From the NCBI RefSeq assembly GCF_020539865.1, contig NZ_JAJBQV010000018.1:1-53816 (forward strand): a stretch of DNA of 53,816 nucleotides, written 5' to 3'. Below the pieces are notes generated by a model. The model saw only the letters and a list, made by a program, of their open reading frames with translations. It made no database searches and was not told the DNA's origin. Below, one piece after another: positions 13,995 to 53,486 of the stretch. The position numbers and the translations under genes were made by a program. How positions within the stretch are numbered: position 1 is the stretch's first letter; every line of letters begins with the position of its first letter. This stretch comes from Megasphaera elsdenii (GTDB lineage Bacteria; Bacillota; Negativicutes; Veillonellales; Megasphaeraceae).

Positions 13995-14101
13995 AACAAA
14001 TCCTTTCTATTTCTTTCGCATATTCTGTTATACAAAACAGTCATCATTCCATATTCTATCACATTGCGTCCCTTTTCGCATTAACTAATTTCAGGGAATG
14101 G

Positions 14102-14137
14102 AAAAAAGGCGCTGTCTTTATGGGACAGCGCCTTTTT
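14102..14137. terminator. Strong bidirectional rho-independent terminator
   Basis: AAAAAAGGCGCTGTC, a six-base loop, then GACAGCGCCTTTTT: a 9-bp GC-rich stem extended by A/T pairs, with T-runs on both strands. It lies just after the stop of the ECF gene (14145) and before mreB, so it ends the ECF transcript on the minus strand. Confidence 0.9.
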
Positions 14138-14144
14138 AGTTTGA

Positions 14145-14774
14145 TTATGCAACCTTCAATCCGGCACGGTGCAAGGCCATGACGATAGGCGTAATGATGA
14201 GTCCTGAGACGACGGCTTCAGGAATGCCGTTGACGGCCGTGATACCCAGCATGATGTTGATGACATTCATGAAAGGAATGCCCTGAGCTTCGGCATAGGG
14301 TACGCCGACGATAGCCGTGAAGGACCCGAGGAAGAGAATCGTATGGCAGACCGTCGTCAAGACCGCCGTAACGGCAATACGCCATACTTCCCGGATTTTC
14401 AGATGACGGTAAATTTCAAAAGCAATGAGGCCGATGAGGGTACGCGGCACAATACAGATGAAGGCATCGGCAACGACATTGTATTGGACGGCAAATAAGA
14501 GCAAGGCACTGGGCGCCTGTAAAGACCGGATAAAAGAAAAAATACCGAACATGAAACCGACAATCATGCCGACCTTACGGCCTGCCGCCAAACTGCCGAT
14601 AATCGTCGGAATATGAAGGATCGTCGCATTCATGATGACCAGCGGAATGAAACCATAGCCTGTAAGGCCTAAAAAAATTGTAATAGCCGACAAAAAACCG
14701 GCAACTGTCAACTGCCGGATTGATAAAAAAGTGCGCTGTGCCGGCATGGTGCCAGCTGCATTCTGTTTTCCCAT
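14145..14774 (-). CDS. ECF transporter substrate-binding S component (PanT/FolT-like)
   Basis: A 209-residue integral membrane protein with about six helices. The segment TGYGFIPLVIMNATILHIPTI followed by GSLAAGRKVGMIVGFMFGI is typical of vitamin-specific S subunits of energy-coupling-factor importers, of the folate/pantothenate type. An S component needs a shared EcfA/EcfA'/EcfT module, absent here, so it is probably a group II importer using a module elsewhere. The start at 14774 is set by GGAGGAAAATC; longer in-frame starts up to 15116 would run through the promoter. The vitamin cannot be told from sequence alone. Confidence 0.8.
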   Translation of the reverse strand: MGKQNAAGTMPAQRTFLSIRQLTVAGFLSAITIFLGLTGYGFIPLVIMNATILHIPTIIGSLAAGRKVGMIVGFMFGIFSFIRSLQAPSALLLFAVQYNVVADAFICIVPRTLIGLIAFEIYRHLKIREVWRIAVTAVLTTVCHTILFLGSFTAIVGVPYAEAQGIPFMNVINIMLGITAVNGIPEAVVSGLIITPIVMALHRAGLKVA

Positions 14775-14850
14775 GATTTTCCTCCGTTCTCGCTCTCTCG
14801 CAAGATACAGGTCGTAACTAAACAAACAGACACAAAAACACGGCCGGTCC

Positions 14851-14888
14851 GCGCCAGTATCCGCCCGTTTCCGGTACCAATCCGGCGC
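14851..14888 (-). promoter_or_regulatory. Structured GC-rich leader of the ECF gene
   Basis: Within the roughly 145-nt leader, GCGCC (14884-14888 on the minus strand) pairs with GGCGC (14851-14855) around an internal CCGG/CCGG segment. It does not match the consensus cores I know for TPP, FMN, THF or preQ1 riboswitches. It may be an unrecognised regulatory RNA or simply a GC-rich leader. Confidence 0.3.
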
Positions 14889-14919
14889 TATCAAAGAACC
14901 TGCCTTATGTGTCACGCGT

Positions 14920-14949
14920 AGTATATCATATTTATCCAGGCCTTGCCAA
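14920..14949 (-). promoter_or_regulatory. Sigma-70-type promoter of the ECF gene
   Basis: Minus-strand TTGGCA (14944-14949) and TATACT (14920-14925) with an 18-base spacer. This is a good housekeeping promoter about 145 bases upstream of the ECF start codon. Confidence 0.7.
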
Positions 14950-14991
14950 TAACAATTAGGAATATTGTGATTTTTCACACGAGCATAATAC

Positions 14992-15025
14992 AAAAGGCGC
15001 TGTCGCATCGCGGCAGCTCCTTTTT
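14992..15025. terminator. Hairpin terminator between the tRNA fragment and the ECF promoter
   Basis: AAAAGGCGCTG ... CAGCTCCTTTTT forms a 7-bp stem with one mismatch, flanked by A- and T-runs so that it could work in both directions. It isolates the ECF promoter from upstream transcription. Confidence 0.55.
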
Positions 15026-15096
15026 GAGTATGAAGTTGAAAGTTTGATGTAGATATTTTTAAATTTAAAGCAATCGTCTCAAACATTAAAGAGAAA

Positions 15097-15137
15097 GGGG
15101 CCGTGCATGATAGCAAAAAGCTTCATGCAACAGCCCC
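15097..15137 (-). terminator. Terminator of the original tRNA-Leu gene
   Basis: On the minus strand GGGGCTGTTGCATGA pairs with TCATGCACGGCCCC, followed by TTTCTCTTT. It starts five bases after the CCA end of the tRNA fragment, so it is the host tRNA terminator left on the chromosomal side of the attachment site. Confidence 0.75.
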
Positions 15138-15141
15138 CTAT

Positions 15142-15197
15142 TGGTGCGAGTGGAGGGACTTGAACCCTCACGCCGTGAAGCGCCAGATCCTAAGTCT
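15142..15197 (-). pseudogene. 3' fragment of tRNA-Leu(UAG): prophage attachment-site scar
   Basis: The minus strand reads AGACTTAGGATCTGGCGC (anticodon loop CTTAGGA, anticodon UAG), a short variable arm, the T arm GAGGGTTCAAGTCCCTC, and CACTCGCACCA. The 5' half is missing: the acceptor strand GCGAGTG and the D arm do not occur upstream, and the 5' anticodon stem no longer pairs beyond AGA. The fragment is the 3' half retained after a phage integrated into the tRNA gene. The phage copy should restore an intact tRNA at the far (right) end, outside the window. Confidence 0.85.
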
Positions 15198-15358
15198 CAA
15201 CTATCTTTGCCAAAAACGGCTTAGTTATGCGGTTTGGCTAGTTCCTTAACAATATTATGATATAAATAAACTGCATTAAACCGTACTAAAGTGATGCTTG
15301 CGGGGTCAAAAATGGGGTCAGATTTTTTTGACTGAAAGACTAATGTGGTATAGGAATT

Positions 15359-15390
15359 GGCGTCCACTCGCAATGGAATGGGCGCCATTT
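15359..15390 (-). terminator. Possible end-of-late-operon hairpin
   Basis: On the minus strand TGGCGCCCA pairs with TGGACGCCA, with one bulged position, about 15 bases after the last lysis-region stop codon. There is no clear T-run on the minus strand, so termination here is only suggested by position. Confidence 0.35.
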
Positions 15391-15403
15391 AGCTTTAGCA
15401 TAG

Positions 15404-15700
15404 TCACTGCAAGCCTGCCGTACTATTCGTTGCGGTACTCTTGTTCAGTACAAATTTCACTGCCCAGATAGCTCCATTAATGACCAACGGTAAGACAATA
15501 CGGTCTCGGAGCATATTCCATCCTGTTTCCGATTTACTCTGTTCCTGAATTTGTGTCGTGAATTTGTCGGCAACAGCTTCGACGGCCGGGATAGCATTCG
15601 TTACGATGTTTTGTGTCAACTCATTCTTCATATCTTCTGTGACAACATCTACGTTCAAAGCGTCTACAACACTGTCTCTAATATCGGTCCATTTACTCAT
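15404..15700 (-). CDS. Small phage protein with a C-terminal hydrophobic segment
   Basis: 98 residues, start behind GGAGGAATGAACG. The first 65 residues are soluble and helical (SVVDALNVDVVTEDMKNEL). Near residues 68-88 is a hydrophobic stretch (RIVLPLVINGAIWAVKFVLN) that could span the membrane once. It is the last gene of the late operon, after the amidase, so a lysis accessory role is possible. I do not recognise a family. Confidence 0.6.
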   Translation of the reverse strand: MSKWTDIRDSVVDALNVDVVTEDMKNELTQNIVTNAIPAVEAVADKFTTQIQEQSKSETGWNMLRDRIVLPLVINGAIWAVKFVLNKSTATNSTAGLQ

Positions 15701-15731
15701 CGTTCATTCCTCCATATATTAATGATTTTAA

Positions 15732-16316
15732 TTAAAAAACAGATTGTACATAGTCAGTTACACCGCGTGCAATTGCTCGAGCAATATCATCCCAATGTTG
15801 TACCAGCAATAGCGCATCGTCGTCATTATCAATAAAAGCTGTTTCAACTAACACCGCCGGCATGTCTGTATAGCGGAGTACAAGCAATCCAGGCATTTCT
15901 TTTACTCCCCTATCAACAGTATCAATACTGTTAATGATTTGGGATTGAATGAACCGGGCTAAACTTCCTCCATTGCCCGTCTGGATGTAGCATTCGGTTT
16001 CTGTCCCACGAGCATTGCCGTTCGTTGCATTGCAGTGGATAGATACAAAAACATCTGCTCCCCATTCGTTGGCGGTTTCAGTAACAGTCATCCCTTGACG
16101 ATCATTATAGTCGCTACGCCCTGCCGGCGTCGGTGCTAAATTTTCGCTCTGCATTAAATAGCATTCACAGCCAGCTACTTCAAGATATTTTTGCACAGCA
16201 GTACCGATTTTGACTGCTACATCGCATTCGCGCAAATCTACATTTCCATTCGTGTCATAATGCACCGCACCACTATCATACTTAATATCATGGCCCGGAT
16301 TGATAAATACCTTCAT
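15732..16316 (-). CDS. Endolysin: N-acetylmuramoyl-L-alanine amidase (Amidase_3)
   Basis: A 194-residue zinc amidase that cuts the bond between MurNAc and L-alanine at lysis. Family zinc ligands and active-site positions are visible: the first His in FINPGHDIKYDSGAV, Glu in DLRECDVAVKI, the second His in DVFVSIHCNATNG, and catalytic Glu in MPAVLVETAFID. There is no signal peptide and no separate wall-binding domain, so release needs the holin. Its ATG overlaps the holin stop (ATGA). Confidence 0.92.
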   Translation of the reverse strand: MKVFINPGHDIKYDSGAVHYDTNGNVDLRECDVAVKIGTAVQKYLEVAGCECYLMQSENLAPTPAGRSDYNDRQGMTVTETANEWGADVFVSIHCNATNGNARGTETECYIQTGNGGSLARFIQSQIINSIDTVDRGVKEMPGLLVLRYTDMPAVLVETAFIDNDDDALLLVQHWDDIARAIARGVTDYVQSVF

Positions 16317-16762
16317 TTCTGTACCATCCTTTCATTTTTATCTGTTAATTGCTCTAAGGTTGCTCTTAATTTCCCCGGGATGGGTAATCCCGCTTTCGCT
16401 GCATTTTCCACGATTGACAACCCTTCATTACCTAAGAAGAACCATACCACCAATGATTGTACAGCCGGCTGGCCCGTGGCACGGTCCAGCTCGTGAGCTA
16501 GTGCTACTAGTAGCAAAATGACGATTTTTTTGCAGATTCCCTTAAAGCCTTTTTGACTATTCAATGCCAAATTAGGGTTAATATAGGCTGCCAAGATTCC
16601 CGTCACGTAGTCGATGGCCATGGCTACCAGCAACGCTTCAATTACGTCATTCCAGCCGATGAGATACGAAAACGCCGTACCAACACATGACACTATGGCT
16701 CCCCATCCCATAGCGCCCCCGCCTGGAACCATCTCGCGAAAAAAAGTTATGATTGATTCCAA
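16313..16762 (-). CDS. Phage holin (toxin secretion/phage lysis holin family)
   Basis: A 149-residue membrane protein. The segments ALLVAMAIDYVTGILAAYI and ICKKIVILLLVALAHELDRATG are the usual core of this Firmicutes holin family. It forms the membrane lesions that release the amidase encoded directly downstream. The TTG at 16762 immediately follows the stop of the 53-residue gene (TAATTG), with GGGGGC nearby as a weak ribosome binding site. An ATG ten codons further in is an alternative start. Confidence 0.85.
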   Translation of the reverse strand: MESIITFFREMVPGGGAMGWGAIVSCVGTAFSYLIGWNDVIEALLVAMAIDYVTGILAAYINPNLALNSQKGFKGICKKIVILLLVALAHELDRATGQPAVQSLVVWFFLGNEGLSIVENAAKAGLPIPGKLRATLEQLTDKNERMVQK

Positions 16763-16924
16763 TTACGTGCCCCCGTTCTGCGTGGTTGTCTCAGTTGTTG
16801 TGGTCTGTTTATCAGCGGCTTCGGCGGCGGACATAACGTCTAAAATGGCATTATGAGGACAATCAGCCCACGGGCACCGTCCGTCGTCGTTTAAAATGTT
16901 CCCGCAAAATTCGCAAAATTCCAT
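16763..16924 (-). CDS. 53-residue zinc-ribbon-like protein
   Basis: A short gene with a strong GGAGGGATGAATC before its ATG. The first 24 residues carry four cysteines in a zinc-ribbon arrangement (MEFCEFCGNI, then GRCPWADCPH). The tail is Ala/Thr-rich and low in complexity (TTTTETTTQ). Its stop abuts the holin TTG start, so it may couple holin translation. Function is unknown. Confidence 0.65.
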   Translation of the reverse strand: MEFCEFCGNILNDDGRCPWADCPHNAILDVMSAAEAADKQTTTTETTTQNGGT

Positions 16925-16936
16925 GATTCATCCCTC

Positions 16937-17380
16937 CTATGCGTTCTTGATTTCCGTAGCCATAGCGGCCAAGGTATTTTTATAGTTGGCGTCAATCTTC
17001 GAGGTATCCGCGCCGAGCATAGTAGCTTTGACGCGGGCCGTGACCATTGCGTCGAGCTGACTATTGTATTTTGCTTTGATAGTGTTGATTTTCGCCGTTT
17101 TCTTTTCGGTCTCCGTTGGTTCGGGCGGAATATAGTCAGTCGGGTTTCCGTCAGATCCGCGTACTTTCCCGTTCAGGTATTCATTGAAATAATCCGCGGT
17201 GATAATTTCAGCAACAGCAACATCTTCTGATATTTCTTTGACTTTATTCAGAAGCTCAGTTATTTTGTCAGCATTTTTACTGCTATTAGGGTTGAAATCA
17301 CAAATCAAACTGCACACGCGTCTACCCGCTGAGTCAAACCCAGCGGCATAGTAATCAACATTAGTTGTGGTACTTGCCAT
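16937..17380 (-). CDS. Tail-fibre assembly/chaperone-like protein
   Basis: A 147-residue protein after the fibre genes. The N-terminal 60 residues are mixed, then a proline-rich hinge (DYIPPEPTETEKK), then a long charged helix (KAKYNSQLDAMVTARVKA and NYKNTLAAMATEIKNA). This layout and position are usual for small tail assembly chaperones of Firmicutes phages. The assignment rests on context and architecture rather than a diagnostic motif. Confidence 0.5.
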   Translation of the reverse strand: MASTTTNVDYYAAGFDSAGRRVCSLICDFNPNSSKNADKITELLNKVKEISEDVAVAEIITADYFNEYLNGKVRGSDGNPTDYIPPEPTETEKKTAKINTIKAKYNSQLDAMVTARVKATMLGADTSKIDANYKNTLAAMATEIKNA

Positions 17381-18284
17381 TATGCATCGCTCCTTATAAT
17401 CTAAAAAATAAAAAGGTTGTGGTGAAAATGAAAAATCCTAATGGTTATGGTTGCATTCGTTTGATGGGCGGCAATCGGCGGCGGCCGTACGCTTTTATAG
17501 CGACAGTTAACGGCAGGCAAAAATACATCGCCGCATTTGAGACGATTTATGATGCTAAAATTTTTCAATCTCGATACTTTGAAGAGCATCATCGAGATTT
17601 CCTCCCTTCGTATCATAAGAAAATCACATTTTCCGAGCTGTATTTTCGTTGGCTGTCGTTTCACAAAGATGAAGACAACGCCCTTTCAAGAAGCACGTTG
17701 TCCGGGTATGAATACGCATATGCTCATTGCTATCCGCTCCATGAAAAATACTTTCCAGATCTGCAATTTTTAGAGCTACAGTCTGTTATCAATCACATGA
17801 GATTCAAAGAAAATTTATCGTGCAGCAGTTGTAAGAAAGTCAAGAATTTGCTGAGCTTGATGTACAAATACGCGATAAAAGCAAATATCTGTCAAACCAA
17901 TTACGCGTTGCTTTTGTCCATTGGCCATAACCACCCGGTATATCCTCATCACGTCATGAGCCGCCAGAAAATCAATCGCCTTTGGTCATCACTCGATACC
18001 CCAGGGGCCGATACTGTACTGATTTTGCTTTATACGGGCCTACGGGTTTCAGAGATGCTCAATATGTTAAAGGTTGAAGTCAACTTGCGGCATAAATATT
18101 TACGTGTTACCCATGCAAAAACGGCATCTGGCGTCCGTGTCATCCCCATTCACCCGAGGATTCTGCCAATCATCTCTCAGCGGATGACCATGCCCGGGCC
18201 TAATCTTGTCTGCGATTATTCCGGACGGCCATACGAGTACTCTCGGTATCGCTCTGCCGTCTGGCATATGGAAAATACACTCGC

Positions 18285-18438
18285 CCCCTCCGACTGTTCT
18301 TGCGAAGCACTAGTACTTATTAACTTTCCCCATGTGTCACTCAGTAGCGCAGTAACGCACTTAGTAGGAAAGGTTATTGGTAGCATAACATTTTTGCTTT
18401 CTTCATTACTCAGTACTGCATTTTCAGTTACCCACTGT
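18285..18438 (-). pseudogene. Orphan alternative tail-fibre C-terminus
   Basis: Directly after the stop of the fibre gene, another reading frame without its own start reads QWVTENAVLSNEESKNVMLP then ITFPTKCVTALLSDTWG. It resembles the gp53-like fibre C-terminal fold (QW..., then a (V/L)P.(A/T)FP core). The real fibre has a matching QWVYALASDQNVGHDFTLPL. Both start at the same 10-bp sequence ACAGTGGGTA in the same codon phase. The fragment loses its end where the recombinase gene begins. It looks like a silent or superseded receptor-binding tip. Confidence 0.55.
18429..18438. repeat. 10-bp direct repeat at start of orphan tip cassette (copy 2)
   Basis: TACCCACTGT, the partner of 18625-18634, adjacent to the stop codon of the expressed fibre gene. 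Recombination between the two would swap the expressed tip for the orphan tip in frame. Confidence 0.6.
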
Positions 18439-18912
18439 CTACATACTACCAATAGCGATAATCCAGACAGGGGTATTGTTCCATCCTATATCGTATGCTT
18501 TTCCATCCGCAATGCCTACTGCGCCAGGCGATGTGCCATTGTGACAAATTGAATACGCATGGACGGAACAGCTCAACGGCAATGTAAAATCATGTCCGAC
18601 ATTTTGGTCAGATGCAAGCGCATATACCCACTGTGTAATTACTCCGCCAAACAGGGCACCCCAGCACACATATCCGTTTTGTCCCAGCGAGTACTTAACA
18701 CCTGTCGCGTCAAATACTTTTTTAATCAGCAGCGCAATCAGGCTGTCCGACGACAATACGTTGACGAGGCTGCTCAGTCCTGTGCTGGCTAGTGTGTTGA
18801 CGATGCCCGTGTTCCAGTCCGTTACCTGGGCTACTTCGGTTTCGGGATGAATTGTGTCATATGCGCTGCTTGTTTTATTCCAGTGATGTAAAATGCCTTT
18901 TAAAATGCTCAT
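18439..18912 (-). CDS. Tail-fibre protein with gp53-like C-terminal tip
   Basis: 157 residues. The start at 18912 follows AAGGAGGATAACA. The N-terminal part (ILHHWNKTSSAYDTIHPETE) is typical of fibre-tip subunits that begin by listing a collar or matrix. The C-terminal 70 residues run from FGGVITQWVYALAS through a beta-rich region to VWIIAIGSM, the usual ending of phage fibre receptor-binding tips. It is likely mounted on the products of the two genes upstream. Confidence 0.65.
   Translation of the reverse strand: MSILKGILHHWNKTSSAYDTIHPETEVAQVTDWNTGIVNTLASTGLSSLVNVLSSDSLIALLIKKVFDATGVKYSLGQNGYVCWGALFGGVITQWVYALASDQNVGHDFTLPLSCSVHAYSICHNGTSPGAVGIADGKAYDIGWNNTPVWIIAIGSM
18625..18634. repeat. 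10-bp direct repeat at start of fibre tip cassette (copy 1)
   Basis: TACCCACTGT on the plus strand, identical to 18429-18438. In both places it encodes Q-W-V in the same frame of a fibre C-terminal domain. Copy 2 begins exactly at the fibre stop codon. Confidence 0.6.
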
Positions 18913-18928
18913 ATTGTTATCCTCCTTG

Positions 18929-19219
18929 TTATTCGCTGACTTCAAGCCAAATCGTATGCTCTGCGGTCGGCTCCGTTCCGCCCACATACATATCTTCTGT
19001 CGGTACTTCTATCCATGTGCTGGACCAGGCGTACGGCTTTACGCTGAGGGTGATGCCGTTGTTGATAGCGTCGTATACGCCACCGCTGGTGACCGGATTG
19101 GTACTTCCGGACGTGGGCTTGCTGTCAAAGGTGAGTTTATTCTGTTTGGCAGCAATCAACGTTTTGATTTTACTGACTGCGTATTTCAGCCCGTCCGCAT
19201 CTAAAAATTTAGTTGCCAT
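18929..19219 (-). CDS. Short tail-fibre subunit with the MATKFLDxDGLKY N-terminal module
   Basis: 96 residues beginning MATKFLDADGLKYAVSKIK, then a linker SGSTNPVTSGGVYDAIN and a C-terminal YVGGTEPTAEHTIWLEVSE. The N-terminus closely repeats that of the next gene upstream (MATKFLDLDGLKYFKTKQD), so both probably dock in the same way, as fibre or baseplate decorations. The ATG at 19219 follows GGGGGTGGCTGTC; a GTG three codons upstream is possible. Confidence 0.65.
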   Translation of the reverse strand: MATKFLDADGLKYAVSKIKTLIAAKQNKLTFDSKPTSGSTNPVTSGGVYDAINNGITLSVKPYAWSSTWIEVPTEDMYVGGTEPTAEHTIWLEVSE

Positions 19220-19291
19220 GACAGCCACCCCCTATGCAAAAGCGGTGTCGATTTCAGTCTGGCTAAGCGCCGAGTACGTGACTGTGCTGTC

Positions 19292-20170
19292 CTAATTTTC
19301 CGGCGTGTATCCGAGGGCTGCTGTGACATTAGCAGACGTCAGCGAGATGACGCCAGATGAAACACTGATATTGCTCCCAATTTTCACTCCCCCTAAAACG
19401 CTGGAGGTAGCAGTCGGAAGGCTGTAATTACCGAGTCCGGCCAGTTTGTTCTTTTCGGCCGTCGTGTAGTCGTTGGTACTGAGCCCTTTGCCGCTTACGA
19501 CTTTGACGTAGGTCGTCGTAATGGTGTTGCCGTCGCCATCGCGGACGGCTTTGTCGGCTGTGCTGACGGCGTCGTTGATGAGCACGTAGGCCGTGCCGGA
19601 CCATCGGTATACGTCGTTGTCGGTGCTGCCAATATCGACATACATGGTGTTGGTCGAGCCTGTGATTGCCGTCGTATGCGTGGGTTCTTTATAAAATTTG
19701 CCGCCGCTGTAATATCCTTCGAGTACTTCACCAATGTCTCCTGGGATGTACTGAGCCGGAATCTTTTTGTCAGATCCGAGCGGGGCAACGCCGTTAGCCG
19801 CGCCAATGAGTGACGTAGCGATACGTGGCGTGCTATCCGTGGAGTGGATGGTGATATTGGCTGACCCGTCGAAAGCTACACCGTTGATGGTCCGGGCCGT
19901 GGCCAGTTTGGTCGCCGTATCGGCCGCGCCGGCGGTTGCAGCCTTGGCACTGATACCGAGATAGTTTTTGGCCGCATCCGTTTTGCTGAGATAGAGGCTG
20001 GTCGCGTCGGTTTTGCTCAGCTTCGTGTCATCGGTAATCGTGATGCCGGTCTTGTTGAGTGCGACGCCATTAATCGTAATGCCCTGTGGCACATACTTCC
20101 CGTCGTTCGCCGCATCCTGTTTCGTTTTAAAGTATTTCAGGCCATCGAGGTCCAGAAATTTTGTTGCCAT
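19292..20170 (-). CDS. Tail-fibre protein; ends at an amber codon with coding-like sequence beyond
   Basis: 292 residues, start behind TAGGAGGAAACT. Fibre-type low-complexity segments recur (KLSKTDATSLYLSKTDAAKN, GYYSGGKFYKEPTHTTAITG). The C-terminus SANVTAALGYTPEN is the standard fibre repeat ending ALGYTP. The stop is TAG (19292-19294), after which the same frame continues DSTVTYSALSQTEIDTAFA before a second TAG. That continuation is exactly what fibre proteins of this type usually end with, so the amber codon looks like a mutation or a readthrough site. Confidence 0.75.
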   Translation of the reverse strand: MATKFLDLDGLKYFKTKQDAANDGKYVPQGITINGVALNKTGITITDDTKLSKTDATSLYLSKTDAAKNYLGISAKAATAGAADTATKLATARTINGVAFDGSANITIHSTDSTPRIATSLIGAANGVAPLGSDKKIPAQYIPGDIGEVLEGYYSGGKFYKEPTHTTAITGSTNTMYVDIGSTDNDVYRWSGTAYVLINDAVSTADKAVRDGDGNTITTTYVKVVSGKGLSTNDYTTAEKNKLAGLGNYSLPTATSSVLGGVKIGSNISVSSGVISLTSANVTAALGYTPEN

Positions 20171-20179
20171 AGTTTCCTC

Positions 20180-20488
20180 CTAAAAAATCGCATCAATATC
20201 CATGTTCAGTATGGTGTCGGCCATAGCGTCTTTTCCTGCCGGCCCCTGTGGTCCCATCGGGCCTTGTGGTCCAGTATCGCCTTTCGGCCCTTTGATGTCT
20301 ACCGGAGCGGGGTTGTCCCGTCCGCCGTCATTGGTCCAGGATAATATGCCGTCATCTGTTATGTGTGGCGTATAGACGGCTCCTTTTGTCCCGGCTACAC
20401 CTATGCCTACCGTCAGGTTATTCCCGGCGCTCAAACGGGCAGACAGCGCAGGGGACCGTGCCGTCAATACAGCCCTTATTTTATCCAT
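20180..20488 (-). CDS. Small collagen-like phage protein
   Basis: 102 residues, start behind TAGGAGGTGCCGT. The C-terminal half has Gly-X-Y repeats (KGPKGDTGPQGPMGPQGPAG), which form a trimeric collagen-like stalk common in phage fibres. The N-terminus (MDKIRAVLTARSPALSARLS) is found in Firmicutes tail accessory proteins. It probably links fibre and baseplate. Confidence 0.65.
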   Translation of the reverse strand: MDKIRAVLTARSPALSARLSAGNNLTVGIGVAGTKGAVYTPHITDDGILSWTNDGGRDNPAPVDIKGPKGDTGPQGPMGPQGPAGKDAMADTILNMDIDAIF

Positions 20489-20498
20489 ACGGCACCTC

Positions 20499-20816
20499 CT
20501 ACGTCGTTGTGACGTCAGGCAGCAGATGGAATTTGCCTGGCCCGATGGTCTGATGCGTCCCGTCTTGTAATGTCAACTGCACATCCCATACATAATCACC
20601 GTAGGCAAGGCCCTGGGTCTTGTCGTGCGTCAGATCTACGACGGAACCGTCTATCGGGCATTGTAAGACATACTCTGTATCGTCATAGGTACGCTTTGCG
20701 GAGAAGATGCCGGTATATCCCGTAATCGGGGTTCCGTCTGCCTGTACCGGCTGAATGGTAAAAGAATCATCGTCGCCGCGTACATAGTAGATGTCCATGC
20801 CTCGTATTTTCAGCAT
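20499..20816 (-). CDS. Baseplate/fibre accessory protein, BppU-N-like
   Basis: 105 residues. Start at 20816 (MLKIRGMDIYYVRGDDDSF), chosen for GGGGTGATGAG upstream. The beta-rich sequence YVRGDDDSFTI, then YTGIFSAKRTYDDTEYVL and YVWDVQLTLQDGT is the pattern of the immunoglobulin-like N-terminal domain of baseplate upper proteins (DUF2479-like). Its place between the fibre anchor and the collagen-like gene agrees. Confidence 0.5.
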   Translation of the reverse strand: MLKIRGMDIYYVRGDDDSFTIQPVQADGTPITGYTGIFSAKRTYDDTEYVLQCPIDGSVVDLTHDKTQGLAYGDYVWDVQLTLQDGTHQTIGPGKFHLLPDVTTT

Positions 20817-20826
20817 CTCATCACCC

Positions 20827-21387
20827 CTATTCGACGATTTCGACCCACATGCCACGCTCAGACATAGACGCCGGTTTATTGGCTGTTGATGTGACCAGTA
20901 AAATGTTTTCATGTGCTACATCGTCTGTATTATGTGCGACGGTCAAAAATCCATTGGGGTTGATGTTCGCTGACACGTTACCCGTATTGCTCATGGTAAA
21001 CTGTAACTGAAATTCTTGCTGTACGACCGTGCTTCCGCCTTCGGCTGGCATATAATCTGGATTGTCGTCCGTCATCGCCACATACATGATTTCACCGACA
21101 TCCGGATCCGTCGCAAATAGTCCCAGCTCTGATATCTTGAACCCCGTTTTAACCCCACTGTTACTGATAGTCAACTCTAGCGTTACGGTATTCCCGCTTT
21201 GCGTAATTTTATTGATTCCCAGTGTCATCTGTTCATTGATTAATGCTGTTGCACTGTTCAACGACCCGGTCTGCGTACCGGACCCGATAGCAACACGAGT
21301 AAACGTGAGTGTAGTCAGGCCGGCATTGATTTTGGCTTGCAATGTCGCCCCGACATCGGTCATGGTGATTTTATTCCAATTTGCCAT
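20827..21387 (-). CDS. Tail fibre N-terminal anchor protein (gpH-like, DUF3751 type)
   Basis: 186 residues. The start at 21387 is fixed by AGGAGGGATGTCATTC. The N-terminus (TMTDVGATLQAKINAG, then LTFTRVAIGSGT) and the middle (KTGFKISELGLFATDPDVGE) are landmarks of the DUF3751 domain that attaches the P2-type side fibre to the baseplate. In P2 this is the first domain of a long fibre; here it is a separate short protein, with fibre functions spread over the following genes. Confidence 0.75.
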   Translation of the reverse strand: MANWNKITMTDVGATLQAKINAGLTTLTFTRVAIGSGTQTGSLNSATALINEQMTLGINKITQSGNTVTLELTISNSGVKTGFKISELGLFATDPDVGEIMYVAMTDDNPDYMPAEGGSTVVQQEFQLQFTMSNTGNVSANINPNGFLTVAHNTDDVAHENILLVTSTANKPASMSERGMWVEIVE

Positions 21388-41196: not shown

Positions 41197-41493
41197 CTAT
41201 TCCTTGCGCGCGCCTGCATCCCCGTAAAGGGTTCGTAAGTAGGCAACGCACTTCGTTCGTATTTCTGCCGCCCTGGCCCCGTGGTGGCGCTCGTAGTGGC
41301 ATCGCTCACAAAGCGTGACGGTTTTATTGATTTCATCCGACTTATAAATCCCGCACGGCTCATGGTGCATCTTTTCCCCGTCGTCGATGTAGCTCCCGCA
41401 GACGATGCACTTATACCCATCTCTTTCGTGTACGCTGTCGTTGAGCCGTTTTAGCTTGACTCCCCGGAGGCGTACTCTTTTTGTCTTTGCAAT
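41197..41493 (-). CDS. HNH endonuclease-like protein without a standard start codon
   Basis: A 98-codon frame reading KLKRLNDSVHERDGYKCIVC, then KMHHEPCGIYKSD, LCERCHYERHHG. The CxxC pair, HHE and CxxCH/RHH residues match a zinc-containing HNH nuclease of the type found in phage early or packaging regions. The frame opens after a TGA near 41510 and contains no ATG, GTG or TTG before the zinc motif; ATT at 41493, behind GGAGGG, is the best candidate. It overlaps the 3' end of the Rep gene (41411), so frameshifted translation from Rep is another option. Confidence 0.55.
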   Translation of the reverse strand: MAKTKRVRLRGVKLKRLNDSVHERDGYKCIVCGSYIDDGEKMHHEPCGIYKSDEINKTVTLCERCHYERHHGARAAEIRTKCVAYLRTLYGDAGARKE

Positions 41494-42253
41494 ATACGTC
41501 GCTATCCCTCCTCGTCATTTTTACTGTGATATGCCAGCCCGTCAATTCATTGAACGTACTGCTGGCTTCGATGAATTCATAGCCAGGATATAATTTCTCC
41601 CATACGTCCCGACAGTCTGTCTGCCCGGCCAGTTCTTCCAGCTTGCGGTACGTAAACGCCCAGTCTGTTTTCGTGACCTTCGGGTTTTCCAGATTCCGTG
41701 AACAAATATACGTGTTCTCAAATTTCTCTTTATCGCGGGCTTCCTTCATGATGTACTGACAGAGCCGCTGCATCAATTCTGCGTCGTCTATCCGCAACCG
41801 GCTGGCATTGCTCAGGCCGTTGCCCCAAACGTCTTCCAGCTCATTGCGGTCCAGGCCCCCGCTGATGATCATGTGAAAATGAATATTCGTTCCCTTTCGT
41901 TCAATGGCTCCCATATACTTTGCCGAGGGAAGCCCCGCTTTTTTACGCCGACGGTTCACGCGCTTGATGAAATTATGGAAGTCTTTCTTGGCATCCTTCA
42001 CGTTGTCCCGTTTGTGCAGCGTGTCATAGGTCAATGTCAAATAAACATCGTCTCCCGTAAAATTCGTTTTTACTTTCTGGCAGAATGTTCGCAATGCCTT
42101 CTTTTTATTTCGGCGTACTTGATCTGGCGAAGACAGGTTGACTTTCTTTTCTCTCATCTTCTTTCCACGTTTCCCCATATCGGGAACTTCAAACAAATCC
42201 GTTTCAAAATATCTTTTTCCGCAGAAATATTTCACATTACGAACAAACCCCAT
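41411..42253 (-). CDS. HUH-type rolling-circle replication initiator (Rep)
   Basis: 280 residues. VYLTLTYDTLHKRDNVKDAK is the first Rep motif, NIHFHMIISGG is the metal-binding HUH motif, and QYIMKEA supplies a catalytic Tyr-x-x-Lys about 55 residues later. These are the hallmarks of single-tyrosine HUH initiators, which nick one strand and stay bound. The protein is much shorter than P2 gpA (about 760) and closer in size to Microviridae or plasmid Reps. The start at 42253 follows GGAAGTGAGACC. It probably starts phage or plasmid replication. Confidence 0.75.
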   Translation of the reverse strand: MGFVRNVKYFCGKRYFETDLFEVPDMGKRGKKMREKKVNLSSPDQVRRNKKKALRTFCQKVKTNFTGDDVYLTLTYDTLHKRDNVKDAKKDFHNFIKRVNRRRKKAGLPSAKYMGAIERKGTNIHFHMIISGGLDRNELEDVWGNGLSNASRLRIDDAELMQRLCQYIMKEARDKEKFENTYICSRNLENPKVTKTDWAFTYRKLEELAGQTDCRDVWEKLYPGYEFIEASSTFNELTGWHITVKMTRRDSDVYCKDKKSTPPGSQAKTAQRQRTRKRWV

Positions 42254-42314
42254 GGTCTCACTTCCTTTCCCGGTGGCACTAAATATAACGCCTACTACAA
42301 GCCCCAATGGGCCA

Positions 42315-42381
42315 CAGGCCCATCACTTCCTTTATATACATATATATGGAAAAATGGAGACGCTCAAAATGAACGTTTCCA
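42315..42381. other. Two inverted repeats upstream of rep (candidate origin or terminator)
   Basis: A perfect TGGGCC ACA GGCCCA stands at about 42308-42322. Further right, ATGGAAACG and CGTCTCCAT pair (about 42348-42378) with a T-run on the minus strand (TTTTTCC). The second could terminate the upstream transcript; together they lie where a Rep nicking origin could be. Between them is an A/T stretch (TATATACATATATATGG). Confidence 0.4.
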
Positions 42382-42391
42382 TTGTCCCTTT

Positions 42392-42502
42392 TTAATTTAA
42401 GATGTGGGCCAGAATATAAATAAATCCGCCCCAAAATAAAAGACTGATGATAATCATGCCCCACCATACCATGGCCCTGAGTTCATAATCTGTTACGTGC
42501 AT
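42392..42502 (-). CDS. 36-residue single-span membrane protein
   Basis: MHVTDYELRAMVWWGMIIIS then LLFWGGFIYILAHIL. Its ATG overlaps the upstream stop (TGCACGTAA), so it would be translated by coupling. One hydrophobic helix covers most of the protein. The function is unknown; small early membrane proteins of phages often act in exclusion. Confidence 0.5.
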   Translation of the reverse strand: MHVTDYELRAMVWWGMIIISLLFWGGFIYILAHILN

Positions 42503-42930
42503 TGTGCTTTCCATTCCTTTCGTTCTTTGCTGTTCATCCACGTCGGATAGTCCATGTGGTGAAGTTTCGCCTGTTCAATATCGAGGCCCAACGGCGATAA
42601 CGGCTTCTTGAGTTTGCGCCGGGGTACAGGCTGTTCCTTCCCATTCCCATAGCGCATCTTTTCTTTCCACTGCTTATTCGCCTGCCGTGACAGCCGCTGT
42701 TTTTCTGTGTTCAAGATATTCTTGGCAATATTCCCACATTCACGGCTGCACACATATGGCGAGGTGTAGTGTTCCAGTGGCCGTCCACATACGATACACT
42801 TCTTTAGTTTCTTTCTTGTCTTCATACGCCGCCACTTGGTATATTCATCTAAGATGCGATGCCGGCATGATTCGCAATACTTTTCATTTCCCTTGGCCTG
42901 AAATTCCCGGCCACAGCAAGGACAAATCAT
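42493..42930 (-). CDS. Zinc-ribbon protein (two Cys-rich motifs)
   Basis: 145 residues; start at 42930 after AAGGGGTGGAACT. Two zinc-binding modules: MICPCCGREFQAKGNEKYCE followed by SC, and KKCIVCGRPLEHYTSPYVCS followed by RECG. The rest is basic (MKTRKKLKKC; RRKLKKPLSPLG). It probably binds nucleic acid. Similar double zinc-ribbon proteins occur near Rep and HNH genes in Firmicutes phages. Confidence 0.6.
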   Translation of the reverse strand: MICPCCGREFQAKGNEKYCESCRHRILDEYTKWRRMKTRKKLKKCIVCGRPLEHYTSPYVCSRECGNIAKNILNTEKQRLSRQANKQWKEKMRYGNGKEQPVPRRKLKKPLSPLGLDIEQAKLHHMDYPTWMNSKERKEWKAQCT

Positions 42931-42941
42931 AGTTCCACCCC

Positions 42942-43493
42942 TTATCCATAAATCTTTACTTCTCCGTACTTTTCTTCGCAGGCAATCAGTCCCGGATATA
43001 CCTGGCCACATTCAACAGCCATGCATTTCATAAATTCTTCAATCCCCGGCTCTCCTTCGCGGATACAGCCGTCATAGAATTTGATTTTCTGCTGAATGGC
43101 TTTGAGACGCTGCGCCCCGAAACCGAACAATTCGTGAATGGCCAGGAACAGGTGAATGTACGATGCTTCGACGCTGGCTATCGCCGACGTCCGCTGATAG
43201 CGCCCATTCAAGCCCACTCCGGATATGATCCAATTGATAAAGTCCCGTTCCAGTCGTTCGCTGACTCCTAACGCCTCCATTTTCTGTCTCATCGCAATGA
43301 AGGCCGTCCCTTCGAATGTAGGATCATCTTTTATTTCCTGCCTGTTGTATTCATTGCATTTCATTTTGATTCGTTCCAGACGTTTTTGGCCGAAGCCATA
43401 GTCGTCATGAAGAGCCATGAATACGAGTGTTGCCGTTGTTGTTTCACCGGCATTGCTTCCGATTTCCAAGTTTCTTTTCTTACTTTTCTGCAT
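42942..43493 (-). CDS. Phage early protein with an internally repeated domain
   Basis: 183 residues. Two halves repeat a motif: HDDYGFGQKRLERIKMKCNE near residue 30 and HELFGFGAQRLKAIQQKIKF near residue 120. The repeated H(D/E)x(Y/F)GFG.(Q)RL..I helix pair suggests a duplicated small domain. No catalytic motif is visible. It overlaps parB's stop by 14 bases and is probably cotranscribed with it. Confidence 0.55.
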   Translation of the reverse strand: MQKSKKRNLEIGSNAGETTTATLVFMALHDDYGFGQKRLERIKMKCNEYNRQEIKDDPTFEGTAFIAMRQKMEALGVSERLERDFINWIISGVGLNGRYQRTSAIASVEASYIHLFLAIHELFGFGAQRLKAIQQKIKFYDGCIREGEPGIEEFMKCMAVECGQVYPGLIACEEKYGEVKIYG

Positions 43494-44571
43494 GTCCTCT
43501 CACCGCCTTCATCTTATCAACCAGCTTCAGCAGGTAGTCCAACTGCTTACACATACTGCTGGCGGCCCACTGCATGTTGTGTATCATTTGTATCTGGGTG
43601 TACGAGCCATTCTTTTCCAGTTCTACATAATTATCTATAAGCCGATGTTTATCCATGATATCTCTCATGACCTTCTTATATTCTTTTTGCAGTTCCATGT
43701 ATTCTTCCGATGTGATGGGTTTATCTTTTGTTGGCGTTTCTTCCTGGGCCGCTTCTTCTGGTACTTCTTCGATGTCTTCCGCTTCATCATCGTCAGAAAT
43801 ATCTTCCGTATCTTCTTCGTCCGCTTCCGGTCTTTCTTCCTGCACAGTTATTTCTTCCTGTACGGCCGCTTCCTGGGCCGGCGCTTCTTCTGTCACTGGA
43901 TGGATGAATTCTTCAATGGATTTCAGGGTAATTTCATCGTCATCCATATGCTGTTCATAGAAATCTTTCTGCCGGTCCGGCGTTAATTTAGATAGTTCAT
44001 AAGCCGCAGAAATGCCTAATTTCCCCGATTTCATCCAGTCGGCGTAATATTTCCGCAGGTTGTTGGAAATGGCTGAGTATCGGGCGATATTGGTCGTGCT
44101 TTCATGCAGCGTCTTGGCAATTGCGTCGCGCTTGCGACCGTTGATTTGATTCGTCATGACGCCGTACTTGAACAGGCTGTTGAGCTGTTTATACTGCTCG
44201 ACCCGTTCCCAGGCAGTCAAGTCCCGGGACGTGCTGTTCGTATCAATAAGCAGCAGTTGATTTCCGTAGTGGTCCGTAGAAATCTCACAAGGTACGGTAT
44301 CGGGAATCCCCACAGTCTGCTCTTTCAGCAGCTCTTTGACGGCCTTGCACCGGCGATGGCCGGATACAATCATGTACCGTCCGTCTTTCATCGGTTCGAC
44401 AATCAAGTTCTGACGGACGCCGCCGGCGGCGATAATCGAGTTCTTCAATTCTTCTACATCGCCGACGATATAGAAGTTATCCGGGTTCTCTACGAGCAGA
44501 TTGACCGGAATCTGTTTAATAGTTCGGTCCTTGTCCTTGTTGACGAGGCCCATGTTTTCCATTAAGCTCAT
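43480..44571 (-). CDS. parB: ParB family partition protein
   Basis: 363 residues. An N-terminal ParB/Srx nuclease-like domain (QIPVNLLVENPDNFYIVGDV, GGVRQNLIVEP, YMIVSGHRRCKAVKELL) is followed by an HTH (KRDAIAKTLHESTTNIARYS) and a very acidic linker (residues 225-290, rich in EEAP and DEEDTED). ParB loads on parS and is moved by ParA. Its ATG overlaps parA's stop (ATGA). Confidence 0.88.
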   Translation of the reverse strand: MSLMENMGLVNKDKDRTIKQIPVNLLVENPDNFYIVGDVEELKNSIIAAGGVRQNLIVEPMKDGRYMIVSGHRRCKAVKELLKEQTVGIPDTVPCEISTDHYGNQLLLIDTNSTSRDLTAWERVEQYKQLNSLFKYGVMTNQINGRKRDAIAKTLHESTTNIARYSAISNNLRKYYADWMKSGKLGISAAYELSKLTPDRQKDFYEQHMDDDEITLKSIEEFIHPVTEEAPAQEAAVQEEITVQEERPEADEEDTEDISDDDEAEDIEEVPEEAAQEETPTKDKPITSEEYMELQKEYKKVMRDIMDKHRLIDNYVELEKNGSYTQIQMIHNMQWAASSMCKQLDYLLKLVDKMKAVRGHAEK

Positions 44572-45311
44572 TCTTTCACCTTCTTTATGATTTCATTGGC
44601 CAATTTTCTATATTGCCATGCTGGTTTGAGTGTCATACCGAGTTCGGCCAGCGGCTTGCACATCAATGTACTGTCGATGATCCAGCGGCTCCGGCTGATT
44701 TTCGTATCGAAGACAGGGAAGCTGGCTCTTAGCAGTCCTTCCGCTTCATCGCTCAGCGTCGTCCGTTCGTCATGCGTGATGAGCACGCCCAACAGTTGGA
44801 GAGCCGGATTGATTTGCAGGACGTCCTGAAGCTGTGTGTCGAGTTCCACCAGCCCCTGGCTGGAAAAGGCGTCCAGCCGCACTGGGATGACGATAAAGTC
44901 CGCAATGCTCAGCGCGTTAATGGTCAGCATGTTCAGTGCCGGCGGGCAGTCGATAAGGACAATATCATATCCGCTGCCGATGTCGGCCAGAGCATCGACG
45001 GTCTTGCTTTCGTAATAACTGCGTTCCAATTCATACAAATCCATATTTCCCGGCATGAGCGACAGAACCGGCCAGTCCGTGCCGATGATTTCTTTTCCCC
45101 GCATCCCGCACGGAGCTGACTGGTCGTACCGTTTGTAGAACTGTGTCAGATTTCCTTGCGGGTCACAGTCAATCATGAGTACTTGCGGTGCCTGGCCGCG
45201 ATGACTGCCAGGCACGTGATGCGTCCGTTGTGTAGCATAAAGGTGGGCCAGGTTCGCCGTCGTTACCGTCTTACCGACGCCCCCTTTTAGGTTGTAAATA
45301 GCGATTTTCAT
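44568..45311 (-). CDS. parA: ParA family partition ATPase
   Basis: 247 residues. NLKGGVGKTVTTANLAHLYA (deviant Walker A), VLMIDCDPQGNLTQFY (Walker A'), DIVLIDCPPALNMLTINALS (Walker B) are all intact. With ParB it forms a plasmid-type segregation pair. A complete parAB in a prophage is expected for phages that can be maintained as plasmids (as P1 and N15). Confidence 0.92.
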   Translation of the reverse strand: MKIAIYNLKGGVGKTVTTANLAHLYATQRTHHVPGSHRGQAPQVLMIDCDPQGNLTQFYKRYDQSAPCGMRGKEIIGTDWPVLSLMPGNMDLYELERSYYESKTVDALADIGSGYDIVLIDCPPALNMLTINALSIADFIVIPVRLDAFSSQGLVELDTQLQDVLQINPALQLLGVLITHDERTTLSDEAEGLLRASFPVFDTKISRSRWIIDSTLMCKPLAELGMTLKPAWQYRKLANEIIKKVKE

Positions 45312-52673: not shown

Positions 52674-53486
52674 ATGAACGAACTCAAACTTTTTGAATCA
52701 CAATATATACGCTCTGTATGGAATCCAGACGAGGAACAATGGTATTATTCTGTTATTGATGTCATAGCGGCACTGACAGACAGCTCAGACCCTCGGAATT
52801 ATTGGAAAGTATTGAAAAGCCGATTAAAAAAAGAGGGGAATGAAACGGTTACAAATTGTAACCGTTTGAAACTTCAGGCGGCTGACGGCAAAATGCGTCT
52901 TACAGATGTAGCCAACACGGAAGAACTTCTTCGAATCATACAGTCCGTTCCATCGCCTAAAGCCGAGCCCTTCAAACTTTGGTTGGCGCAAACTGGTGCT
53001 GATCATCTTCTGGATCTTGCCGATGCGAAAAAACTGCAAGAAGAAATCGACACGCGGATACGGGCTCGCGATGACGTCCGCGAACATAATAAATCGCTGG
53101 CGAAGGCGGCCCAAGATGCCGGTGTTTCGACAAATCAAGAATTTGCAAGATTCCAGAACAGCGGTTATATGGGGCTGTACGATGGAGAAACAGCAGCCGC
53201 CATTAAACGCCGCAAGGGATTAAAGAAAAGCGAAGATATTTTAGATAATATGGGCAGTGAAGAATTGGGCGCCAACCTCTTTCGCATTACACAGGCAGAA
53301 GCCAAATTACGGCGTGAAAATATTCAGTCCAAAGAAGAAGCCAATAAAGCTCACTTCGAAGTCGGATATACCGTCCGCAAGGCTATCGAATCATTAGGCG
53401 GAACCATGCCAGAAGACCTCCCTACTCCTGATAAAAGCATCAAGCAGATTGAACACGAAAGAAAAAACCAACTGAAGAAAAAATAA
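52674..53486 (+). CDS. BRO-N/DinD-like protein
   Basis: 270 residues. The N-terminal BRO-N domain reads IRSVWNPDEEQWYYSVIDVI, then SDPRNYWKVLKSRLKKEG and KLWLAQTGADHLLDLADAKK. The C-terminal 130 residues are helical (KAHFEVGYTVRKAIESLGGT) and end in a Lys-rich tail. The layout is that of DinD, a SOS-induced protein that disassembles RecA filaments; BRO-N proteins are also phage antirepressors. The ATG at 52674 follows CGGAGGTTATTT. Confidence 0.75.
   Translation: MNELKLFESQYIRSVWNPDEEQWYYSVIDVIAALTDSSDPRNYWKVLKSRLKKEGNETVTNCNRLKLQAADGKMRLTDVANTEELLRIIQSVPSPKAEPFKLWLAQTGADHLLDLADAKKLQEEIDTRIRARDDVREHNKSLAKAAQDAGVSTNQEFARFQNSGYMGLYDGETAAAIKRRKGLKKSEDILDNMGSEELGANLFRITQAEAKLRRENIQSKEEANKAHFEVGYTVRKAIESLGGTMPEDLPTPDKSIKQIEHERKNQLKKK

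What the first reader, a model, noticed from the sequence alone, without database searches (positions are those of the whole stretch)
17428..18912. Truncated tyrosine recombinase next to a duplicated tail-fibre tip: a possible host-range switch
The expressed fibre gene and a start-less second tip share the same 10-bp sequence (18625-18634 and 18429-18438) in the same reading phase, exactly where the tip domain begins and where the fibre gene ends. A plus-strand recombinase faces them and has lost its own 3' end at the second tip. Phages switch tail fibres by recombinase-driven inversions (Mu Gin, P1 Cin), but here a tyrosine recombinase is embedded and disrupted. Recombination at the repeat would swap tips in frame. 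I consider this the most interesting structure in the window.
Basis: partly seen in the sequence, partly recalled or inferred. Interest (0 to 1): 0.7.

Follow-up and report, generated by a model that had tools for sequence, protein, structure and literature searches.

The report
Broken relic of phage fibre shufflon
This stretch looks like the damaged remains of a DNA-flipping device with which phages of Megasphaera, Dialister and related bacteria swap the tips of their tail fibres; relatives still carry intact-looking versions, but here the flipping enzyme has lost its active end.

Summary
A plus-strand tyrosine recombinase (17428 to about 18265) has lost its catalytic C-terminus. It runs into the antisense of a truncated tail-fibre tip (about 18266-18437), beside the minus-strand fibre gene (18439-18912). 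The 10-bp repeat alone is not beyond chance. Comparison shows what it is: the core of a crossover-like site (TNNACAGTGGGGA, over the Gln-Trp codons that open the tip).

Relatives carry an intact recombinase followed by arrays of up to 13 such sites in both orientations, opening alternative tips. Shared tips often lie inverted between loci, with breakpoints at the sites, even between two related prophages of one chromosome. In 119 of 120 listed fibre relatives a conserved stem runs into 52 kinds of tip.

The known kind is the Rin tyrosine-recombinase shufflon of Bifidobacterium and Eggerthella prophages. Here it is in Veillonellales phages, with a Gln-Trp site and an arm-like N-terminal domain. 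The window's copy is a relic: no catalytic tyrosine, one orphan tip, two direct sites. It is probably locked. Recombinase activity and host-range effects are untested.

The parts
17428..18265 (+). Truncated tyrosine recombinase (invertase relic), about 279 residues; lacks HxxR and the catalytic Tyr
   Evidence: 78% identical to the intact L153 recombinase over the part kept
18262..18270 (.). Deletion junction: recombinase homology ends at about Trp279 (window numbering); orphan-tip homology ends from the other side
   Evidence: junction sequence not found in IMG/VR or in 61 genomes of the order
18266..18437 (-). Orphan tail-fibre tip cassette, start-less, about 57 aa, C-terminus missing
   Evidence: PF21882 just under cut-off; homologue is the P0198 tip, 83 aa, 57.9% over 57 aa
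18429..18441 (-). Crossover-like site 2 (TAGACAGTGGGTA); begins with the fibre stop codon and opens the orphan tip
18439..18633 (-). Expressed variable tip of the fibre (64 aa); the same cassette is parked in inverted orientation in L150
   Evidence: 89% aa identity to the L150 cassette; inverted blastn block 18428-18634 to L150 5221-5015, 88%
18625..18637 (-). Crossover-like site 1 (TACACAGTGGGTA), stem/tip boundary; the inversion breakpoint relative to L150 lies in 18627-18634
18634..18912 (-). Constant fibre stem (Rc, 93 aa before Gln-Trp)
   Evidence: 18624-18852 aligns + to L150 6139-6367, 83%; stem plus Gln-Trp boundary in 119 of 120 listed relatives
18439..18912 (-). Complete fibre gene as it stands (157 aa)

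Best explanation
The locus is the decayed remnant of a tail-fibre tip shufflon driven by a dedicated tyrosine recombinase. In intact relatives the order is: recombinase, then an array of alternative tip cassettes (mostly 63-88 residues) in both orientations, then the constant fibre stem. A cassette opens with a short asymmetric site (TNNACAGTGGGGA) laid over its Gln-Trp codons and usually ends with a stop codon overlapping the next site. Recombination between the site at the stem/tip boundary and an inverted site flips a block of cassettes, so that the same stem is fused in frame to a different tip. In the window a deletion has removed the recombinase's catalytic end, any further cassettes and the end of the last cassette. 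This leaves one expressed tip, one truncated orphan tip and two directly repeated sites, so the fibre is most likely fixed. Shown here: the anatomy, inversions between relatives with breakpoints at the sites, and the truncation. Inferred: that this recombinase catalyses the inversions, that tips set host range, and that the window's copy is inert.
For: Window against L150: the stem 18624-18852 aligns in direct orientation (83%) and the tip 18428-18634 aligns inverted (88%); the two blocks overlap only in the site, so the breakpoint lies in ACAGTGGG. L148 against L153: 5254-5676 is inverted to 4047-3625 at 94% while the flanks are collinear at 67-68%. L148 against L001: left flank 98% identical and collinear, one cassette inverted at 93%. 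G010 (one contig of 2.4 Mb) carries two prophages that are 98-100% identical over about 9 kb around the locus, with identical recombinases, but with rearranged cassette blocks at 100% identity, one displaced in direct orientation and one inverted, all boundaries inside copies of the site. L264 and L265 (two genomes of one unnamed family of the order) show two cassettes exchanged between + and -; 27 cassette pairs of at least 60% identity between different loci among 25 loci examined, 15 in opposite orientation (two of the 15 are overlapping readings of one cassette) and 12 in the same orientation. Fibre relatives: 119 of 120 listed (of 758 hits) keep the stem and the Trp boundary, then fall into 52 tip clusters, some with a 100% identical stem. 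A separate large serine recombinase lies at the far end of 3 of 5 related phage records, so the tyrosine enzyme need not be the integrase. In the tree, the 24 rows scored as array-bearing (window included) plus 2 unclear rows are split from 41 other relatives by one branch at 99% SH-aLRT.
Against: No reads were available, so no inversion was observed within one population. No biochemical evidence links this recombinase to the sites. The junction at about 18265 is seen in this contig only (0 hits in IMG/VR, where records of the window's own genome may be left out; 0 of 61 genomes), so an assembly chimera is not excluded. The bare repeat is not statistically striking. The array scan by exact 10-mers is insensitive: of 105 loci scanned it flagged 4 (L070 and L152, which are the same sequence, L148, and L199, which looks like chance), and it missed L068, L149, L150, L151 and L153, which have sites by motif; so absence of arrays in distant relatives is weakly shown. 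Array labels in the tree were partly assigned by hand: L266 rests on 3 copies of a variant site, L260 and L263 were unclear, L069 and L236 show only two plus sites before the contig ends. In 4 of 5 related phage records this is the only tyrosine recombinase, and 1 of the 5 (L150) shows no serine recombinase either.
Confidence: 0.88

Rival explanations
1. Ordinary tail-fibre mosaicism: tips are exchanged between phages by homologous or illegitimate recombination at conserved Gln-Trp codons, with no site-specific recombinase involved.
For: The site coincides with conserved codons, so some similarity is expected from protein conservation alone; 12 of 27 shared cassette pairs are in the same orientation.
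Against: Cassettes are found in both orientations, which vertical or homologous exchange of a gene end would not produce; breakpoints lie in stretches of 8-13 bp; two related prophages in one chromosome differ at this locus only by shuffled blocks at 100% identity; an intact recombinase sits beside the arrays in L001, L148 and L153 and in others.
Confidence: 0.05
2. The recombinase is simply the prophage's own integrase in decay, and the tips beside it are coincidental.
For: The protein is most similar in fold and sequence to integrases such as Tn1549 Int, with lambda Int aligned over 344 columns at TM 0.53; it has an arm-like N-terminal unit; at least a dozen IMG/VR contigs with distant relatives (about 29-37% identity) end just past the gene, as expected for integrases at prophage ends. 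In 4 of 5 related phage records it is the only tyrosine recombinase.
Against: Large serine recombinases at the far end of 3 of 5 records; in L001, L002 and L003 the gene keeps its place between the lysis side and the tip array; a Dialister phage record has two further tyrosine recombinases besides it.
Confidence: 0.04
3. The window's junction is an assembly chimera: shufflon loci with mixed orientations assemble badly, and the source phage has an intact locus.
For: Contigs of L001, L069, L236 and L250 end within about 0.5-0.8 kb downstream of the recombinase; the exact junction occurs nowhere else examined.
Against: The junction lies inside two coding sequences and not at the repeated site, where assembly errors would be expected; three near relatives of the recombinase (96-97% identical where aligned) are also damaged, each differently (P0005, P0007, P0021).
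Confidence: 0.12
4. The locus is still switchable in trans by an invertase of another prophage in the same cell.
For: Some genomes hold two related prophages with this recombinase (G010, G020).
Against: The window's two sites are direct repeats and both carry the variant GTA end, so only loss of the present tip is open to it; the host genome is not held, so this was not tested.
Confidence: 0.08

Closest known systems
Rin shufflon of Bifidobacterium breve/longum prophages (Mavrich et al. 2018, PMC6109161; section 8 read, other passages seen)
   Same: Tyrosine recombinase on one side, constant receptor-binding-protein stem (Rc) on the other, variable C-terminal cassettes (Rv) between; short asymmetric repeat before each cassette; two direct sites in the expressed gene (one inside, one just after the end), as in the window.
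   Different: Different site (TTCCCTAACCC there, TNNACAGTGGGGA here, over Gln-Trp codons); their Rin is described as arm-less, whereas the enzyme modelled here has a strand-strand-strand-helix arm-like N-terminal unit; other phylum; larger arrays (up to 13 sites in L148). The window's copy is broken.
Rin shufflon of Eggerthella lenta clade 1 prophages (PMC8778435; passages seen)
   Same: Tyrosine recombinase, tandem small Rv genes with homology to the C-terminus of a larger Rc gene, short repeated site inside and after Rc.
   Different: Site ttccgtat; H-type lectin tips; different host phylum.
Gin (Mu), Cin (P1), Min (p15B) tail-fibre inversion systems (as summarised in PMC6109161)
   Same: Phage tail-fibre tip switching by DNA inversion.
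   Different: Serine recombinases; here a tyrosine recombinase (PF00589).
Rci/PilV shufflon of IncI plasmids (recalled; not examined here)
   Same: Tyrosine recombinase, several inverted segments that swap the C-terminus of an adhesin.
   Different: Pilus adhesin of a conjugative plasmid, not a phage fibre; no sequence comparison made here.

Membership tests
Rin-type phage receptor-binding-protein shufflon | Tyrosine-family recombinase next to the variable cassettes | tested here: met
   PF00589 in five intact relatives, E 1.4e-19 to 2.7e-22; the window copy is truncated and under the Pfam cut-off
Rin-type phage receptor-binding-protein shufflon | Constant stem gene with one site inside and a second direct site just after its 3' end | tested here: met
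   window 18625-18637 and 18429-18441; same layout in L148 and L150
Rin-type phage receptor-binding-protein shufflon | Several alternative C-terminal cassettes in both orientations | tested here: met
   met in relatives (L148, L150, L254, L258, L256/L257, L070, L267, L268); in the window only one truncated orphan cassette remains, so the window itself no longer meets it
Rin-type phage receptor-binding-protein shufflon | Rearrangements with breakpoints in the short repeat | tested here: met
Rin-type phage receptor-binding-protein shufflon | Recombinase distinct from the phage integrase | tested here: inconclusive
   separate large serine recombinase in 3 of 5 related records; of the other 2, L152 has two more tyrosine recombinases and L150 has neither in the record held; the window's own integrase was not identified
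Rin-type phage receptor-binding-protein shufflon | Arm-less recombinase | tested here: not met
   Model of the intact L153 enzyme has strands 9-12, 21-27, 30-37 and helix 40-54 before the core domain (equating this with an arm-type domain is inference). 6 of 21 matches in the order survey align only from residue 60-66 on
Rin-type phage receptor-binding-protein shufflon | Sequence kinship with Bifidobacterium or Eggerthella Rin proteins | not tested
   no Rin sequence of those hosts was in hand
Gin/Cin/Min serine invertase systems | Serine recombinase next to the inverted segment | tested here: not met
   the neighbouring recombinase is of the PF00589 tyrosine family
Functional DNA-inversion switch | Intact recombinase and at least two inverted sites in the window | tested here: not met
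   catalytic end absent from the whole window; only two site matches up to one mismatch, both on the minus strand

The most novel reading that the evidence does not exclude
Veillonellales phages have turned an arm-bearing, integrase-type tyrosine recombinase into a dedicated multi-cassette fibre invertase with its own solution to the inversion-versus-deletion problem: the arm-like domain and/or the small conserved ORF beside the outermost site keep directly repeated sites from deleting cassettes, so that long arrays persist. Loss of the enzyme, as in the window, freezes one fibre, and such freezing recurs in this lineage.
Probability: 0.25. Interest if true: 0.7.

Novelty: new variant of a known kind. 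Interest (0 to 1): 0.5.

Why it matters
In the open-licence papers I searched, tyrosine-recombinase fibre shufflons in phages turned up only for Bifidobacterium and Eggerthella prophages. A broad family in Megasphaera, Dialister and other Veillonellales phages, with two differently shuffled copies inside one chromosome, gives material to test how an invertase avoids deleting directly repeated cassettes, which the Rin authors state as an open question. The window adds a likely frozen end state: a phage that has lost the enzyme and keeps one tip, so fibre choice in switchable and locked lineages can be compared.

Tried and rejected
Tried without result: blastn of window 16500-21000 against 50,697 phage records gave no match; the recombinase's nearest relative among those records is only 35% identical; Rfam on 14000-21000 gave nothing; the tRNA scan of the window gave none; the junction sequence was not found in IMG/VR, in the 269 loci or in 61 genomes. 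The fibre model is too weak for firm statements (mean pLDDT 62.8, first 53 residues under 50); its matches include several tail-fibre proteins, some with gp53-like C-termini. Literature searches naming Megasphaera, Veillonella or Negativicutes together with phage inversion gave 0, 0 and 1 unrelated paper (listings only); broader ones (listings only) showed the two Rin papers and none whose title or shown abstract start concerns these genera. PMC11323893 (passages) names none of Megasphaera, Dialister, Veillonella in its main text. The library holds open-licence PMC papers only.

Rejected: (a) the 10-bp repeat as evidence by itself; (b) integrase of the prophage as the main role; (c) insertion of the tip into the recombinase gene: both partners are truncated at the junction, so a deletion fits better; (d) a deletion by the recombinase itself between direct sites: the junction is not at a site.

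Full report
What is in the window. The left part is chromosomal (among others mreB, mreC, a penicillin-binding protein, a MinD-like ATPase, rodA/ftsW and RNase E/G), followed by a prophage read mainly on the minus strand. At its lysis-side end lie lysis-type genes (named by me from their sequences, not searched) at 15732-16762, a 147-aa ORF (16937-17380), a plus-strand ORF with recombinase similarity, and the tail-fibre genes. The plus-strand ORF 17428-18552 matches integrase families only in its first 274 residues (phrog_1 E 3e-27, profile 126-378 of 611; PF00589 23-80 of 172, under the cut-off). Alignment with intact relatives shows that homology stops at about Trp279 and that about 66 residues, with HxxR and the catalytic Tyr, are missing. 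That end is found nowhere else in the window. On the other strand the region beyond about 18266 is a fibre tip (PF21882) without its own start or end.

The repeat. TACCCACTGT occurs at 18429 and 18625, both as Gln-Trp-Val codons of a tip. Ten-base repeats are expected by chance in 1.5 kb (observed 3 pairs, shuffled mean 1.66, 78 of 300 shuffles as many), and the 13-base pattern with one mismatch reaches two matches in 30 of 100 shuffles of the window. The case for the repeat comes from relatives.

Relatives. A scan of IMG/VR with the truncated protein gave 66 loci, of which L003 (77%), L001 and L002 (65%) and L004 (48%) are close. L001, L002 and L003 carry a full-length recombinase; L004 has an in-frame stop at codon 41. 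Downstream lie short ORFs on both strands that read as fibre tips. In the Megasphaera-type loci tips open with TNNACAGTGGGGA or close variants, in Dialister with ACAGGGTGGA, and most end with a stop codon overlapping the next site. L148 (the same contig as L002) has 13 such sites, 7 plus and 6 minus, 11 of them perfect. Where the whole array is held, one plus site lies nearest the recombinase and one minus site lies in the fibre stem. Further loci came from genome contigs (80 kept of 118), viral contigs (80 kept of 109; 7) and a survey of 61 genomes of the order, 17 of which had a match at E 1e-60 or better, 21 matches in all. The ten best matches (54-62% identity, 8 genomes) have two or more sites in the flank held in 9 cases; the tenth flank has one site and is partly masked by N. 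Of the 11 weaker matches (38-51%) I fetched longer flanks of 8: L264 and L265 use the variant CCAGTGGGG, L259, L261 and L262 use CCAAGGGGG with Gln-Gly-Gly, L266 rests on three copies of another variant, and in L260 and L263 I found none.

Inversions. Window against L150: the stem aligns in direct orientation, the tip aligns inverted, and the blocks overlap only in the site. L148 against L153: a two-cassette block is inverted at 94% while flanks are collinear at 67-68%. L148 against L001: the recombinase side is 98% identical and collinear, one cassette is inverted. The clearest case is G010, a single-contig genome with two prophages. The recombinase and the next 492 bases are identical and the 6.8 kb beyond the array 99.98% identical; further upstream identity is about 98% for a few hundred bases and then is lost. 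Between them one cassette block is displaced in direct orientation and another is inverted, both at 100% identity, with all boundaries inside copies of the site. By my reading at least two inversions are needed. L264 and L265 differ by exchange of two cassettes. Over 25 loci (the window included), 27 pairs of homologous cassettes (60% or more) were found in different loci, 15 in opposite orientation, of which two are overlapping readings of one cassette, and 12 in the same orientation.

Tip diversity. A protein search with the fibre gave 758 relatives; 120 were listed. In 119 of 120 the stem (median 92.6% identity to the window, lowest 43%) runs to the Trp boundary, after which tips fall into 52 clusters; several relatives with a 100% identical stem have unrelated tips. 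The list is ranked by similarity to the window's fibre, so the largest cluster (44) is enriched for the window's own tip. The orphan tip's nearest homologue among them is the tip of P0198 (57.9% over 57 aa), 83 aa long, so about 26 residues are missing.

The enzyme. The intact L153 enzyme (344 aa) is modelled with mean pLDDT 85 and pTM 0.59; an N-terminal strand-strand-strand-helix unit precedes the core and catalytic domains. That this is an arm-type DNA-binding domain is inference. The closest solved structures are Tn1549 integrase, and lambda integrase aligned over 344 columns at TM 0.53. In a tree of 67 rows, 24 rows scored as array-bearing (the window included) and 2 unclear rows are separated from 41 other relatives by one branch at 99% SH-aLRT; the window sits with L153 (99%). 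'None found' among the 41 rests on an exact 10-mer scan that also missed some true arrays, so a wider distribution is possible. A large serine recombinase lies at the far end of 3 of 5 related phage records, which makes a pure integrase role unlikely, though in 4 of 5 records this is the only tyrosine recombinase.

Decay. The window lacks the recombinase end and the small ORF found in some relatives, and holds no further sites. The junction lies inside two coding sequences, not at a site. It was not found in IMG/VR or 61 genomes, so a second witness is missing. Three database recombinases that are 96-97% identical to the window's where aligned (P0005, P0007, P0021) are damaged too, each in another way; these may be real losses or gene-prediction fragments.

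Comparison with the literature. The Bifidobacterium Rin shufflon (PMC6109161, section 8 read; [quoted passage not shown] The E. lenta clade 1 prophages have a like system (PMC8778435, passages). Differences here are the site, the arm-like unit, the hosts and the array size. Kinship with those Rin proteins was not tested. I therefore say it works like a Rin shufflon and rank it as a new variant of that kind; the window's copy is most likely a non-functional relic.

Limits. Inversion by this enzyme, effect on host range, and inertness of the window's copy are inferred. No reads were available.

Noticed in passing
L150:4790-5005 (-), L003:3410-3607 (-), L067:2716-2922 (-); absent from window: A 65-71 aa ORF of unknown function between recombinase and array in a subset of loci; its upstream region abuts the outermost crossover site. 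No Pfam hit for the L003 copy; no homologue in the window. Candidate accessory or directionality factor.
   Followed up: partly
window 41411-45311 (-): Rep protein (phrog_3584, REP_ORF2-G2P) with ParB- and ParA-like partition proteins inside the prophage: looks like a phage-plasmid module.
   Followed up: no
L070:8001-9008 and L152:4492-5499: The Dialister recombinase has an in-frame TAG at codon 41 although its six-site array (3 plus, 3 minus) looks intact. The two loci are the same sequence over the stretch compared.
   Followed up: partly
protein P0002: Recombinase that looks chimeric: residues 1-200 are 98.5% identical to the window's, while the last 140 are 97% identical to the Megasphaera NM10 enzyme (L067).
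   Followed up: partly
L148:4370/4380, L149:2285/2302, L254 and L258 (downstream offsets 833/843, 1483/1493; 638/648, 1773/1783): Some adjacent sites form head-to-head pairs 10-17 bp apart, small palindromes of two sites.
   Followed up: no
window 52674-53486 (+): BRO-N domain protein near the window's right end; by inference from related records the phage's own integrase region may lie beyond the window.
   Followed up: no
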